Of a DNA stretch of 64,000 nucleotides, positions 30,697-35,292 are shown in pieces. The position numbers and the translations under genes are program-made. The DNA comes from an uncultured Hungatella sp. (GTDB lineage: Bacteria > Bacillota > Clostridia > Lachnospirales > Lachnospiraceae): NCBI GenBank assembly GCA_947089145.1, contig CAMUJH010000005.1:40829-104828 (forward strand). Direction: 5' to 3'. Position 1 is the first letter of the stretch. The number at the start of each line of letters is the position of its first letter. Below the pieces are notes generated by a model, which saw nothing but the letters and a program-made list of their open reading frames with translations, had not been told where the DNA came from and did no database searches.

Positions 30697-31837
30697 GTTT
30701 TTCTCCCGGGTTTCCGAAGTTTTCTTTATTAATATCAAAATCCACCTGAAGCCTGACTGTAAACACAGTGCCGTTCAGATCACTGGCCACTCCTATGGTT
30801 CCGCCATGCATCTCCACAATATTCCTGGCAATGGCCAGCCCAAGTCCGGTTCCTCCTGTATTGGAGGAGCGGGACTGTTCCACCCTGTAAAATTTCTCAA
30901 ACAAAAGAGGAAGCTCCTCTTTCGGTATTACATATCCATAGTTGGTGACAGACACGGTTACCATGGTTTCCGCAGCATGAATCTTCACCACAATGCGTTT
31001 TCCCTCTGCCCCGTATTTAATTGCATTATTGATCAGATTATCAAACAGTCTGGCCAGCAGATTTCCGTCTGCATTAATCATCTTTGCCGGAACGTTGCTC
31101 TGCAATTCGTATGCCAGATTTTTATCCATGAAATTGGGATAGAATTCCTCCAGAAGCTGGCTTAACAGTTTTACAATGTCTACCTTTGTAACTTTCATGG
31201 ATACTTTTCCGTAATTCAGCTTGGTGAATCCAAATAAGTCCTCTATAAGCTTCTCCAGACGTTTTGCTTTTGTGTAGGTGATATTAATATATTTTTTCTC
31301 CATCTCCGGGGTTATATTCGTGGAGACAGACAGCAGTTCCAGATAGCCGATGATAGATGTCAGCGGAGTTCTCAAGTCATGGGCTATGTTGGTAATCAGC
31401 TCATTTTTCGTTCGTTCTGATTCCCGCTCCTTATCCATCAAAGTACGGATATCTCCCACCATTTTGTTGAGATTGGCAGCCATGGCGGAAAATTCGTCAT
31501 CTCCTACTACCTCCACAGTGGTATTTAAGTCGCCCTCGGAAATATTGCGGATCGCAGTGGAAAGCTTTATGATATAGTCCATAGATTTTTTCTGCAGTAC
31601 AAGAAAAGCCGCAGAAAACGTGGCGATTCCAGCCAACACGTACAGAAGCGTGATGACTGCGTCCGGCTGATAAAAGACAGCCTGCAGGGATTTCTCCCTG
31701 CCCTGCCTCACGGCGTACTCTCCCAGCATCGTAAGATTGGTCACGAGGAACAGATCCACCAGGCAGGCAAACATGGCACTGAGTATAATATTGGTGATCA
31801 CTCTTGTATGAAACCGGCGGCTCATATCATTTTTCAA
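30686..31837 (-). CDS. Sensor histidine kinase, VanS-like
   Basis: A 383-residue kinase with two membrane helices (about 12-32 and 58-80) around a short outer loop, a HAMP segment, a phosphoacceptor His in ITNIAHDLRTPLTSI near residue 153, and an ATPase domain with DNLINNAIKYG and GTGLGLAIARNIVEMHGG. The short outer loop suggests sensing inside the membrane or through the neighbouring transporter. The TTG at 31837 has AGGG 7 nt upstream; ATG 31825 is an alternative. Overlaps the regulator gene. Confidence 0.9.
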   Translation of the reverse strand: MKNDMSRRFHTRVITNIILSAMFACLVDLFLVTNLTMLGEYAVRQGREKSLQAVFYQPDAVITLLYVLAGIATFSAAFLVLQKKSMDYIIKLSTAIRNISEGDLNTTVEVVGDDEFSAMAANLNKMVGDIRTLMDKERESERTKNELITNIAHDLRTPLTSIIGYLELLSVSTNITPEMEKKYINITYTKAKRLEKLIEDLFGFTKLNYGKVSMKVTKVDIVKLLSQLLEEFYPNFMDKNLAYELQSNVPAKMINADGNLLARLFDNLINNAIKYGAEGKRIVVKIHAAETMVTVSVTNYGYVIPKEELPLLFEKFYRVEQSRSSNTGGTGLGLAIARNIVEMHGGTIGVASDLNGTVFTVRLQVDFDINKENFGNPGEKHEF

Positions 31838-32531
31838 TTTTGTACCCTACCCCCCACACCGTGGTGATAATCTTATTCTGCCTGGTATCTTCTTTCATCT
31901 TTCCTCTAAGGCGCCGGATATGTACCATGACCGTATTATTGGCCTCATAAACCTTCTCATTCCACACCTTCTCAAAAATCTCGTCAGTACTGAACACCTT
32001 TCCCGGGTTGGAGGCCAGGAGATATAAAATGTCAAATTCAATGGGAGTCAGCTTTATCTCTTCCCCATAAACCGTTACCTTATGATTATCTTTATTAATC
32101 ACCAGACCTTTAATGGAAATCTCGTTTCTGTCTTCTTCCCTGGATGCACTGTTGGGATTTAACTGAGTATAGCGCCGCAGCTGGGATTTTACCCTGGCTG
32201 TCAGCTCCAGAGGATTAAACGGCTTTACCACATAATCATCTGCCCCTGTGCCAAGGCCCAGGATCTTGTCAAGGTCTGTAGAGCGGGCACTGAGCATAAT
32301 AATCGGAATGTTATTGGTTTCCCGTATCTTTTTGCACATCTCCAGGCCATCCATTCCCGGCATCATAATATCGAGAAGCACCAGATGAATCTCTTCTTTC
32401 TCAAGAATGTTCAGCCCGTCCTGGGCATTGCCTGCCTTAAATACTCTATATCCATCGCTGACCAGATAAATTTCCACCAGGTCCGCAATCTCATTTTCAT
32501 CATCAACTACCAGAATACTGATCTGTGACAT
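31827..32531 (-). CDS. OmpR/PhoB-family response regulator, VanR-like
   Basis: A 234-residue regulator. The receiver domain has DDE near residue 10 and the phosphoacceptor in LVLLDIMMPGMDG near residue 54. The winged-helix domain follows, with LTPIEFDILYLLASNPG and a VHIRRLRGKM recognition helix. AAAGGAGG lies 7 nt before the ATG. As first gene of the nine-gene run it likely controls that run. A -10-like TATGAT lies about 60 bp upstream. Confidence 0.92.
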   Translation of the reverse strand: MSQISILVVDDENEIADLVEIYLVSDGYRVFKAGNAQDGLNILEKEEIHLVLLDIMMPGMDGLEMCKKIRETNNIPIIMLSARSTDLDKILGLGTGADDYVVKPFNPLELTARVKSQLRRYTQLNPNSASREEDRNEISIKGLVINKDNHKVTVYGEEIKLTPIEFDILYLLASNPGKVFSTDEIFEKVWNEKVYEANNTVMVHIRRLRGKMKEDTRQNKIITTVWGVGYKIEK

Positions 32532-32706
32532 GGAATGTCCTCCTTTTTCTGCAGCGTTTCTTTCCAGGTTCGCCTTTGTCTATCCATCATACCACATAAA
32601 AGGGGATTTTGCTTTACTTTTTCATTAAAAAAACACAGGGGAATCTCTGTCAAATTCCCGGAAGTTCCCTTACATGGCTATAATTTTCAGTGCTAAGGGA
32701 AGATCG

Positions 32707-32860
32707 TTAAGGCGAAGCTGCAGGCAGGCCGTTGAGTGTCCTGCTGCTGTCCGGGTTCAGGTTTGCAGGACATTCCGATGAGCCAAAAAGCGTGTCTCAT
32801 CTCCATAGCAAAATTCACCCGGACAGCAGCAGGACACTCAACGGCAAAAGCAGAATCCGC
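32707..32860 (+). repeat. 154-bp structured element, copy A
   Basis: Order: conserved lead-in TTAAGGCGAAGCTGC, a 29-nt stem arm (32728-32756), a 60-nt loop, the perfectly complementary arm (32817-32845), then conserved AAAAGCAGAATCCGC. The loop has a nested stem GATGAG/CTCATC (32777-32782/32796-32801) and an outer TTTGC/GCAAA pairing. Lead-in, loop and trailer match copy C; the stem does not. No frame, T tract or terminator logic explains it. Confidence 0.75.
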
Positions 32861-32994
32861 CGGCCTAAATCCTTGAGCAGATGACGCCGGCCCATACACG
32901 GAAAGCCTTCTCTATATCAATCATTAGCATTAGCGCTGCGGGCAAACCATGCTCACATAACCATTAAATTTCCTGCAGCATATCATCAGATTAA

Positions 32995-33148
32995 GCGAAT
33001 TCTGCTTTTGCCCCAAGGGCTCCATCTCCTGGCAGGGTGAATTAATGCCGTGGAGAAGAGACCTGTTTTTCGGGCTCTTCGGAACGTTTGGCAATTCTGA
33101 ACCCTGCCAGGAGATGGAGCCCTTGGGGCCTGCGGCAACTCCGCCTAA
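32995..33148 (-). repeat. 154-bp structured element, copy C (inverted)
   Basis: Read on the minus strand: lead-in TTAGGCGGAGTTGC, a 28-nt arm (33128 to 33101), a 62-nt loop, the perfect partner arm (33038 to 33011), then trailer AAAAGCAGAATTCGC. The loop shares TTCCGA, GAGCC, AAAAA, GTCTC and TCTCCA blocks with copy A; the nested stem is GAAGAG/CTCTTC, a compensated change. About 12 of 28 stem positions differ from copy A, yet both stems pair perfectly. Confidence 0.75.
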
Positions 33149-33153
33149 TCCCC

Positions 33154-35292
33154 TTATTCCGTCTCCCTCTCCACCGGGACAAACACCCTTTTATCCTCCG
33201 GCTCCTCTAAAGCCTGCTGCCTCTTTACCGCTTCCACGGCCTCCTGGCAGAACCTTTCCTGTGCGCACAGGGGCGTCTTTCCCCTTCTGTCAACCTTCGC
33301 ATAACTTCCGTCGGGCTGCAGGATATGAGCCTTCATATTGTCGTCCAGCTGAACCTGCAGAATATGGATCGCTTTCTCTTTAAGCTTCTCATCCAGAACA
33401 GGGAACACGATCTCCACCCGCCGGTCCAGGTTCCTGGGCATCCAGTCTGCGCTTCCCATGTACACTTCAGGAAACTCGTCATTTTCAAAATAGAAAATGC
33501 GGATATGTTCAAGGAAATTGCCTACAATAGAGCGAACTGTAATATTTTCGCTAAGGTTAGGAACTCCTGCCTTAAGGCAGCAGATTCCCCTGACAATCAA
33601 ATCAATCTTTACGCCTGCGCATGAAGCCTCATACAAAGCCGCAATAATATCCCTGTCGCACAGGGAATTTACCTTGGCAATAATTCTCGCGCTTCTTCCT
33701 GCCTTTGCATGGTCGGTTTCCCGCTTAATCATGCGAAGGAATCTTTTCCGCAGCCAGATCGGCGCCACTGCCAGCTGATTCCAGTGAAGAGGTTCCGAGT
33801 ACCCGGACATCATGTTGAAAACCGCCGTAGCGTCCTCTCCGATCTGGGGATGGCATGTAAGGATTCCGCAGTCTGTATACAGCTTCGCCGTAGAATCATT
33901 GTAATTGCCTGTACCCAGATGGACATAACGGCGAATTCCGTCTTCCTCCCGGCGTACTACCAAGGTAATCTTGGAATGGGTCTTCAATCCCAGCAGGCCG
34001 TAGATTACATGGCATCCCGCCTTTTCCAACGTCTTAGCCCAGTTAATATTGTTCTCCTCATCAAACCTGGCTTTCAATTCCACCAGGACAAATACCTGCT
34101 TGCCCCGGTCCGCCGCCTCCGCCAGCGCAGCCACAATCGGCGAGTTGCCGCTGACGCGGTACAGCGTCTGCTTAATAGCCAGCACCTGCGGATCTCTGGC
34201 AGCGGTCTTTACAAAACTCACCACCGGGTCAAAGGATTCATATGGGTGATGCAGAAGAATGTCTCCTTTGCGGATATTGGTAAAGATGTCATCCTCATTC
34301 ATAAAGGCAGGGTTAGGCTGAGGGGTATATCTGGGGGCCTTCAGATGGTCAAAGCCATCCATTCCGTACATCTTCATAAGAAATGTCAGATCCAGGGGGC
34401 CGCTGATAGCAAAAATATCCTCAGAATGGATATCCAGTTCCTTTTTCAGACGCTTCAGCAGCCGTTTGTCTGTATTTTCCTCGATCTCCAGGCGGATTGC
34501 TTCCCCCCATCTGCGCTTCTTTAACTGCTTCTCGATTTCCTTTAATAAATCCTCGGCCTCTTCCTCGTCTATAGTCAGATCTGCGTTTCTCATGATCCGA
34601 AACGGATGGGCATCCAGAACTTCGTGTTTTACAAACAGGGAGGAAATATTTCGCTCTATGATCTCCTCCAGCAGGATTACTACCCGCTCCTTGTCTGACG
34701 GAATCTCCACAATGCGGGGAAGAACGCTGGGTACCTGAACCATGGCAAAATCCAGCTGCTCCGGCTTCTCCTTTTCTTTAATAAGCGCGGCAATATTCAG
34801 AGATTTATTGTATATCAGCGGGAAGGGCCTGGAAGAATCCACTGCCATAGGAGTCAAAACCGGGTACACGTTGGAGCGGAAGTATTCATCTGCAAACTTC
34901 CCTTCCTCCTCTGTCAGCTCTTCATGCCTGGCAACAATGCGAAGGCCGTTCTGCCGCAGCGCAGGAAGGAGAGAACGGTTATAAGTGGAATATTGAAGCG
35001 CCACCAGGTCATGGGTTTTTTCCCCTATCTTTTCTAACTGCTCCTCAGGCTTTAGCCCTGCTATGTCCGGCTTGGAATATTTTGCATGAACCATGTCTTT
35101 TAAAGAAGCTACCCGCACCATGAAAAACTCGTCCAGGTTGGAGGCCGTTATGCTTAAAAATTTCAGCCGCTCAAACAGCGGCAGGCTTTTATCTCTTGCC
35201 TCTTCCAAAATCCGATAATCAAATTCCAGCCAGCTTAATTCTCGGTTTACATAATTCTCACACTTTATATATCGTGAATCTATCTCAGCCAC
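33154..35292 (-). CDS. ppk: Polyphosphate kinase 1
   Basis: A 712-residue RNA-degradosome/Ppk1 family enzyme that polymerises ATP gamma-phosphate into polyphosphate. The N-terminal domain starts YVNRELSWLEFDYRILEEA; the catalytic core has IKQTLYRVSG, the phosphorylated histidine in LKTHSKITLVVRRE, and VHLGTGNYNDSTAKLYTD; GSADWMPRNLDRRVE is the second active-site element. It lies 3 bp after ppx, forming a synthesis/degradation operon. Confidence 0.95.
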   Translation of the reverse strand: MAEIDSRYIKCENYVNRELSWLEFDYRILEEARDKSLPLFERLKFLSITASNLDEFFMVRVASLKDMVHAKYSKPDIAGLKPEEQLEKIGEKTHDLVALQYSTYNRSLLPALRQNGLRIVARHEELTEEEGKFADEYFRSNVYPVLTPMAVDSSRPFPLIYNKSLNIAALIKEKEKPEQLDFAMVQVPSVLPRIVEIPSDKERVVILLEEIIERNISSLFVKHEVLDAHPFRIMRNADLTIDEEEAEDLLKEIEKQLKKRRWGEAIRLEIEENTDKRLLKRLKKELDIHSEDIFAISGPLDLTFLMKMYGMDGFDHLKAPRYTPQPNPAFMNEDDIFTNIRKGDILLHHPYESFDPVVSFVKTAARDPQVLAIKQTLYRVSGNSPIVAALAEAADRGKQVFVLVELKARFDEENNINWAKTLEKAGCHVIYGLLGLKTHSKITLVVRREEDGIRRYVHLGTGNYNDSTAKLYTDCGILTCHPQIGEDATAVFNMMSGYSEPLHWNQLAVAPIWLRKRFLRMIKRETDHAKAGRSARIIAKVNSLCDRDIIAALYEASCAGVKIDLIVRGICCLKAGVPNLSENITVRSIVGNFLEHIRIFYFENDEFPEVYMGSADWMPRNLDRRVEIVFPVLDEKLKEKAIHILQVQLDDNMKAHILQPDGSYAKVDRRGKTPLCAQERFCQEAVEAVKRQQALEEPEDKRVFVPVERETE

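What the first reader, a model, noticed from the sequence alone, without database searches (positions are those of the whole stretch)
32707..33148. Two inverted 154-bp elements with covarying perfect stems and a conserved loop
Copies A (32707-32860, plus) and C (32995-33148, minus) are the same length and share lead-in, ~60-nt loop and AAAAGCAGAAT trailer. Their 28-29-bp stems are each perfect. Compared with each other, the stems differ at about 12 of 28 positions, every difference matched by its partner; the nested loop stem also changes in a compensated way (GATGAG/CTCATC versus GAAGAG/CTCTTC). This indicates structure, not sequence, is maintained. It could be a new structured RNA, a single-strand-DNA recombination site, or a mobile palindromic element. 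The alternative is arm-to-arm gene conversion.
Basis: seen in the sequence. Interest (0 to 1): 0.88.

Follow-up and report, generated by a model that had tools for sequence, protein, structure and literature searches.

The report
Jumping hairpins with self-matching arms
Two long DNA hairpins lying between two bacterial genes are members of a family of small jumping elements with more than thirty copies in this genome, apparently moved by a transposase encoded elsewhere; their two arms keep matching each other while their sequence changes, which makes them a natural test bed for how matched mutations arise.

Summary
In detail: A and C each carry a perfect 29-bp stem, and the stems differ at 12 of 29 positions, always on both sides. 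They belong to a multi-copy family: 42 distinct places in this genome, and matches in 8 of 24 congeners but 0 of 16 genomes outside the genus. The family is mobile. Many copies end in an 18-nt terminal inverted repeat (TIR; 52 sites, 0 in the control) and 9-12 bp target duplications (11 of 20, against 5 of 380 mismatched pairings). The same TIR lies beside IS4-family transposase genes in related genomes. At the window's locus, four congeners lack both copies; the sister species has C but lost A's hairpin. I conclude that A and C are degenerate IS4-type MITEs (miniature non-autonomous transposons). Covariation is real (144 double-changed cells against 37 in shuffles), but G·T wobble is not favoured over A·C (18 against 31 of 2717 cells), and recent double changes are mostly transversions. 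That points to pairing kept at DNA level, partly by arm-templated copying, rather than a classical RNA. The conserved loop also occurs in a second mobile frame and is unexplained.

The parts
32707..32863 (+). Copy A, whole hairpin element (A subfamily)
   Evidence: CM match 32720-32863, 144.7 bits
32728..32756 (+). A, 5' arm of the 29-bp stem
   Evidence: (I3)
32757..32816 (+). A, 60-nt loop with nested stems
32817..32845 (+). A, 3' arm of the 29-bp stem
   Evidence: (I3)
32846..32860 (+). A, conserved trailer AAAAGCAGAATCCGC
32992..33148 (-). Copy C, whole hairpin element (CAATGTC-TIR subfamily, C type)
   Evidence: CM match 32992-33137, 177.9 bits
33101..33129 (-). C, 5' arm of the 29-bp stem (minus strand)
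33039..33100 (-). C, 62-nt loop; identical to the consensus of the 18 own C-type loops of that length
33010..33038 (-). C, 3' arm of the 29-bp stem (minus strand)
32995..33009 (-). C, conserved trailer AAAAGCAGAATTCGC
32978..32995 (-). C, decayed right TIR (11 of 18 matches to the inverse of CAATGTCATTTAGTTAAG); the left TIR is worse (9 of 18)
   Evidence: row L033
32671..33153 (.). Stretch holding A, spacer and C; missing between the same two genes in four congeners

Best explanation
A and C are old, partly decayed copies of a family of non-autonomous IS4-type transposons (MITEs), about 180 bp long where both TIRs are intact. SHOWN: the family has many copies in this genome and in congeners. 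Better-preserved copies have the TIR CAATGTCATTTAGTTAAG and direct duplications of 9-12 bp, most often 10. The same TIR lies beside IS4 transposase genes in related genomes, and the window's locus is empty in four other species. INFERRED: an IS4 transposase acting in trans cut and pasted the elements, mostly into intergenic sites. This assembly, which is 87% complete, has none matching the one I tested, so the enzyme was lost, is missing from the assembly, or is of another subgroup. The interior is a conserved loop core held on a stem whose sequence is free as long as the two arms pair. INFERRED, less certain: the stems are kept perfect at DNA level in the source copies. When the hairpin extrudes during replication, the nascent strand switches template onto the other arm, so one event rewrites both arms; selection on transposable source copies discards elements whose fold or loop is broken. 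Once inserted, copies drift with uncompensated changes and can lose the hairpin by deletion.
For: Copies: 42 distinct places in own genome, matches in 8 of 24 congeners and 0 of 16 others. TIR: 52 sites with up to 2 mismatches in own genome, 0 for the reversed control. Target duplication: 11 of 20 elements score at least 5, against 5 of 380 cross-pairings. Transposase: the TIR-linked ORF on L229 (cut by its contig end) passes the NCBIfam IS4 cut-off (118.2 against 115 bits) and Pfam DDE_Tnp_1. A congener, G015, has a 463-aa open frame, 46% identical to it over the match, between two TIRs with one mismatch each (L242). Empty locus: G024, G005, G015 and G022 lack A and C; sister G010 (ppk protein 98% identical) has C but A's hairpin is deleted. 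Intergenic: 15 of 16 sites have no ORF of 150 aa or more across the restored site (crude scan). Covariation: 144 double-changed cells against 37.4 +/- 4.7 in shuffles and at most 23 in slid controls. DNA-level pairing: G·T 18, A·C 31, other mismatches 95, Watson-Crick 2573 in 88 hairpins. Double changes among 19 own C-type copies: 11 distinct, 9 of them transversions; single-arm changes 24 cells, 16 of them transitions (Fisher p = 0.012; 16 of 19 and p = 0.001 after removing cells caused by shifts). G015: one stem position occurs as T/G (10), T/T (2) and G/G (3) in 15 hairpins.
Against: No match to the L229 transposase in own genome; its two DDE_Tnp_1 genes have no TIR with up to 4 mismatches in the stretches fetched. 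A shows no clear TIR and C only decayed TIRs without target duplication, so their transposition is inferred from relatives and the empty locus. Nine of 20 elements show no duplication at the threshold. Arm-templated copying alone does not explain why the unpaired internal-loop bases stay conserved (pairwise identity 0.858 against 0.657 in the stem middle). It can also invert loops, and none was seen (61 usual, 0 inverted, 53 undecided of 114). In the one orthologous pair (C in G010) the two changes are uncompensated. Stem mismatches in inserted copies are not significantly rarer than mismatches in target duplications (6 of 261 against 5 of 88, p = 0.15; with L048 included 8 of 289 against 7 of 100, p = 0.07). 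The copies are related, so the p-values and shuffles are indicative only.
Confidence: 0.75

Rival explanations
1. A structured regulatory or small RNA carried by the element: the transcript folds, the loop binds a protein or target, and selection keeps the stem by ordinary compensatory mutation.
For: Strong covariation against shuffled and slid controls. Nested stems covary while neighbouring unpaired bases stay conserved. The same core sits in several species and in two mobile frames.
Against: Wobble pairs are 18 of 2717 stem cells and no commoner than A·C (31), where RNA selection on the + sense would favour them; a transcript of the other strand would see the 31 as wobble, p = 0.085, so that sense is less clearly excluded. 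Recent double changes are 9 of 11 transversions, which do not pass through wobble. No promoter-like site in 32500-33250. No Rfam match at the gathering score; the four weak hits are microRNA models far below their cut-offs. The sister species lost A's hairpin.
Confidence: 0.15
2. Pure DNA mechanics: an inert MITE whose palindrome is kept perfect only by template switching or inter-copy conversion, with no selection on the fold; loop identity merely reflects recent spread.
For: Both homogenised states of the same mismatch occur. Double changes far exceed the shuffled control and have another spectrum than single changes. Template switching at quasi-palindromes is established in E. coli (PMC7202029, abstract) and proposed for RNA hairpins (PMC8794818, abstract and discussion).
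Against: Conserved unpaired internal loops would be converted into pairs or drift; they have not. Loops are near identical between species whose stems differ through most of their length (L075 against own C type). No inverted loops among 61 decided.
Confidence: 0.35
3. A single-stranded DNA recombination or replication site (attC-like, or a substrate of an HUH enzyme), where the folded strand is the substrate.
For: Nearly Watson-Crick-only stems, conserved unpaired loops, folds strongly as DNA.
Against: The ends and target duplications fit a DDE transposase, which (established knowledge) acts on double strands. I did not search for integrases or HUH enzymes.
Confidence: 0.08
4. Bidirectional transcription terminators or mRNA-stabilising hairpins at gene ends.
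Against: No T run after the stems; the only terminator-like site found in 32500-33250 is a different hairpin at 32639-32659. The locus has no such element in four congeners.
Confidence: 0.05

Closest known systems
Bacterial MITEs with whole-element stem-loops (ERIC, YAPL/RU-2, RUP, Correia/NEMIS, RPE)
   Same: About 100-170 bp, mobile repeats, largely intergenic, many forming long stem-loops; empty sites reported for YAPL (reviews PMC2229807 and PMC10969869, passages read).
   Different: As recalled, those families are compared by sequence identity; here the stem sequence is nearly free while pairing, loop and trailer are kept, and the ends match IS4-family elements.
bcr1 repeats of the Bacillus cereus group
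   Same: Recalled from memory: about 155 bp, mobile, with a conserved secondary structure; only a search listing seen here.
   Different: Different host and, as recalled, different ends and target.
IS4-family insertion sequences (NF033592, DDE_Tnp_1)
   Same: TIR CAATGTCATTTAGTTAAG beside the transposase gene; about 10-bp duplications in our element, a length that I recall as usual for part of this family.
   Different: No transposase gene; interior replaced by the hairpin core, for which the model finds only 2 matches in 19 loci with the TIR or an IS4-like gene, and I read both as element remnants beside or interrupted by an IS.
Quasi-palindrome template-switch mutation
   Same: Arms become more alike in one event (PMC7202029 abstract; PMC8794818 abstract and discussion).
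   Different: Studied there in E. coli reporters and in rRNA or microRNA gene histories; here it would act repeatedly on dispersed mobile copies.

Membership tests
MITE (non-autonomous DNA transposon) | Short, many dispersed copies | tested here: met
   42 distinct places; 180 bp from TIR to TIR in intact copies such as C48:11778-11957
MITE (non-autonomous DNA transposon) | Terminal inverted repeats | tested here: met
   18-nt TIR, 52 sites against 0 in control; in A and C themselves absent or decayed
MITE (non-autonomous DNA transposon) | Target-site duplication | tested here: met
   11 of 20 elements against 5 of 380 cross-pairings; not visible at C, not tested at A
MITE (non-autonomous DNA transposon) | Empty sites in relatives | tested here: met
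   ppk locus: four congeners without A and C; not tested at other loci, and the exact junctions were not resolved
MITE (non-autonomous DNA transposon) | No transposase of its own | tested here: met
   About 150 bp each; the only ORF of 80 aa or more reaching into A or C is 33045-33383, no known protein by eye, not searched
Derived from IS4 family | Shares ends with an IS4-transposase element | tested here: met
   L229 by profile; L242 by similarity to it; L227 and L232 by eye only
Derived from IS4 family | Matching transposase present in the same genome | tested here: not met
   0 matches in G000, 5 of 26 genus genomes have one; two DDE_Tnp_1 genes of G000 lack the TIR nearby. The assembly is 87% complete
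Derived from IS4 family | Mobilised in trans by that transposase | not testable with these tools
   needs a transposition assay
Structured RNA family | Compensated changes in helices | tested here: met
Structured RNA family | Wobble pairs tolerated better than non-pairs | tested here: not met
   G·T 18, A·C 31 of 2717 (p = 0.085); the lean is towards wobble on the minus sense, not significant
Structured RNA family | Match to a curated family | tested here: not met
   0 at gathering score in the whole window
Structured RNA family | Transcribed | not testable with these tools
   only a consensus promoter scan, 0 found
REP/RAYT (HUH-mobilised) repeats | Mobilised by a Y1 transposase | not tested
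   no search for Y1 enzymes was made
Integron attC site | Integrase and cassette array | not tested
   no integrase search was made

The most novel reading that the evidence does not exclude
The hairpin core is a folded nucleic-acid module of its own, selected as a fold (conserved loop, trailer and unpaired bases; stems free in sequence but strictly Watson-Crick). It has been captured by at least two apparently unrelated mobile frames: the IS4-type CAATGTC element and a second element flanked by CTAA in G015. Its arms evolve by one-step arm-templated rewriting. It would be a DNA-level counterpart of a covarying RNA, able to mislead RNA finders that rely on covariation.
Probability: 0.25. Interest if true: 0.75.

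Novelty: new variant of a known kind. Interest (0 to 1): 0.5.

Why it matters
Covariation is usually taken as the best evidence for a conserved RNA. Here is a large natural set, dozens of dispersed copies in some genomes, with strong covariation but no wobble preference and with transversion-rich double changes; a mobile DNA palindrome may therefore imitate an RNA family. The set also makes the open question of how matched double substitutions arise (two steps through wobble, or one templated step) directly countable, because copies can be dated by their target duplications and compared with orthologues.

Tried and rejected
Rfam at gathering score and at E up to 1: nothing credible. Plasmid and phage collections: no match. 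Composite-unit reading of A+C (one transposon with a hairpin at each end): a second pair of the same kind lies on contig C29 with similar spacing but different spacer sequence, and A and C belong to different subfamilies, so I treat them as separate insertions; this is not proven. The repeat GCTGT[AT]T[AT]GTTGAGTGAGC in G015 was first taken as a second TIR; its flanks turned out to be conserved too, so it is internal to a larger CTAA-flanked element. Terminator reading rejected. The palindrome GTTACTGTTCAC, seen in variant forms at several insertion sites, has no match in the window. Paper searches for this element by TIR or trailer letters, by host name, or by MITE with Lachnospiraceae or with IS4 and Clostridium gave no paper on it; the library holds open-licence papers only.

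Dropped rows: of 103 candidate hairpins 15 were dropped before the pair counts for having fewer than 22 columns or under 80% Watson-Crick pairs; some were chance or truncated matches. The filter inflates the Watson-Crick share but should not bias G·T against A·C. Gap columns (48) were not counted as mismatches; some come from a mis-set loop anchor in five copies. In one search the 24 single cells include 4 caused by one-base shifts in L017 and L019 and 2 from one changed pair in L013; the cleaned count, made by hand, is 16 transitions and 3 transversions (tested). The target-duplication comparison used nine copies; L048 was left out there and added, and L107 has no hairpin. The hairpins come from the loci that I fetched, not from every copy in G005, G015, G016 and G024. 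One search used stricter filters that lose weak matches.

Full report
OBSERVATION. A has 29 of 29 Watson-Crick pairs around a 60-nt loop and C (minus strand) 29 of 29 around a 62-nt loop. The stems differ from each other at 12 of 29 positions, each compensated. Folding z-scores are about -10 to -11 against dinucleotide shuffles, as RNA and as DNA. They lie in the 622-base gap between a response-regulator gene (31827-32531, minus) and a polyphosphate kinase gene, ppk (33154-35292, minus; gene names from my reading of the translations, no profile search).

FAMILY. A search of the window's own assembly (G000, 4.46 Mb, 127 contigs, 87% complete) with A gave 46 blastn places. From 27 copies I built an alignment and a covariance model R1. 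R1 gives 69 rows in the own genome, which are 42 distinct places once the 27 reverse-strand duplicates of palindromes are removed (my count); 31 of them score above 100 bits. Among 40 relatives it finds matches in 8 of 24 congeners and 0 of 16 genomes of other families in the order (stricter filters). Named contigs that carry the exact trailer are mostly labelled Clostridiaceae isolate C65_88, Hungatella sp. or Lachnospiraceae; of 81 stretches found, those from distant phyla look like chance 18-mers and were not examined.

MOBILITY. Aligned flanks of the C-type copies show the end sequence CAATGTCATTTAGTTAAG inverted at both ends. It occurs 52 times in the own genome with up to 2 mismatches and 0 times for the reversed control. 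Intact copies measure 180 bp from end to end, e.g. C48:11778-11957. Of 20 elements tested (19 model matches, window copy C among them, and one 72-bp internally deleted copy), 11 have a target-duplication score of at least 5, against 5 of 380 pairings of flanks from different elements; lengths are 9, 10 or 12, most often 10. The exact 18-mer occurs in 12 of 299 genomes of the family, own included. In three of the others (L227, broken; L229; L232, partial) it is followed by a transposase-like frame by eye. That of L229 passes the NCBIfam IS4 cut-off and matches Pfam DDE_Tnp_1. Relatives of that protein occur in 5 of 26 genus genomes, not in the own one. The best, L242 in G015, is a 463-aa open frame between two one-mismatch TIRs. 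The own genome has two other DDE_Tnp_1 genes; no TIR with up to 4 mismatches lies in the stretches fetched around them. At the window's locus the sister species G010 (ppk 98% identical in protein) has C with an identical loop and two single-arm changes, while A is reduced to its trailer, its lead-in and a stub of one arm. G024, G005, G015 and G022 have neither. Fifteen of 16 C-type sites have no ORF of 150 aa or more across the restored site. G010, 82% complete, has 8 distinct places by my count, 3 above 100 bits, so the family expanded in the window's lineage, shrank in the sister, or is under-assembled there.

STRUCTURE. The covariation is strong: 27 of 41 pairs have a change on both sides and 144 cells are double-changed, against 37.4 +/- 4.7 in shuffles and at most 23 when the partner is slid. 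The stems of the fetched copies vary widely between fixed ends, while the loop is conserved. G016 copies with the C-type loop differ from own copies at a few loop bases but through most of the stem. Mean pairwise identity in the 27-copy alignment is 0.657 in the stem middle, 0.858 in unpaired internal-loop columns, 0.863 in the inner stems, 0.882 in the trailer, but only 0.596 in the lead-in.

RNA OR DNA. In 88 hairpins from five genomes (of 103 candidates, 15 dropped by length or pairing) there are 2573 Watson-Crick, 18 G·T, 31 A·C and 95 other cells. Selection on a transcript of the + sense would favour G·T over A·C; the counts lean the other way, p = 0.085, so a minus-sense transcript is less clearly disfavoured. 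For 19 own C-type copies, 11 distinct double changes fill 22 cells and single-arm changes fill 24 cells. Doubles are 9 transversions and 2 transitions; singles are 8 and 16 (p = 0.012), or 3 and 16 when cells made by one-base shifts and one double-counted pair are removed (p = 0.001). The copies are related, so this is indicative. Two-step compensation through wobble predicts transitions. In G015 one stem position is found as T/G (10), T/T (2) and G/G (3) in 15 hairpins, so both ways of removing a mismatch, or recombination between two perfect forms, have occurred. No loop is inverted relative to the trailer (61 usual, 0 inverted, 53 undecided of 114), so whole-loop template switches are rare or removed.

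WHAT INSERTED COPIES DO. They drift. The G010 orthologue of C has two uncompensated changes. Stem mismatches in nine copies with a duplication (6 of 261 pairs) are not significantly rarer than mismatches in their duplications (5 of 88, p = 0.15); with L048 added it is 8 of 289 against 7 of 100, p = 0.07; all counts were made by hand. Hairpins are also lost by deletion: A in G010 and, perhaps, a 72-bp copy with TIRs and a perfect 10-bp duplication, which may instead have moved without the hairpin. So the matched changes probably arise mainly in source copies or around transposition.

SECOND FRAME. In G015 the same core sits, often twice in opposite orientation, inside a larger repeat with ends CCCGGATAAACC and GTTCTTAAGGGT, next to CTAA on both sides at 10 of 13 distinct loci by my count. 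The left CTAA is nearly constant, so it may be part of the element. A core shared by two frames hints that the hairpin is a module of its own, the basis of the novel case.

MECHANISM. I favour an IS4-type non-autonomous transposon carrying a fold-selected core whose arms are rewritten jointly by replication template switching. Template switching at quasi-palindromes in E. coli is described in PMC7202029 (abstract and start of the introduction seen). Its role in RNA hairpins is argued in PMC8794818 (abstract and discussion read), which also states that its evidence for maintenance of short stems is circumstantial. IS elements, including an IS4 member, are reported to target REP palindromes (PMC1525189, passages). 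MITE reviews PMC2229807 and PMC10969869 were read in passages only. What the loop does is not known; the identity as a mobile element is well supported, the maintenance mechanism only moderately.

Noticed in passing
G015 loci L089-L096, L255-L274: Nested palindromes: a CTAA-flanked element with two inward-facing hairpins seems to have inserted into the apical loop of another hairpin of the same family (L096 compared by eye with L310).
   Followed up: partly
L264 (G015:C1:181000-181900), about 190-330: Fusion of the left half of one hairpin with the right half of another, as if the DNA between two inverted copies had been deleted.
   Followed up: no
Flanks of L041, L042, L043, L044, L055 and others: Several insertion sites lie in a palindrome like GTTACTGTTCAC..GTGAACAGTAAC, perhaps a REP-like preferred target of this IS4 group; no copy of it in the window.
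   Followed up: partly
L252 and L242 (G015): IS4 elements with CAATGTC-type ends lie inside or beside hairpin elements of the family.
   Followed up: no
G021:C179:249-266 (L145): A lone TIR followed at once by GCATTG, possibly a 24-bp remnant element.
   Followed up: no
G000 contigs C65, C79, C91, C119, C64, C75, C14, C48: Several copies sit near contig ends, so the true copy number in this assembly may be higher.
   Followed up: no
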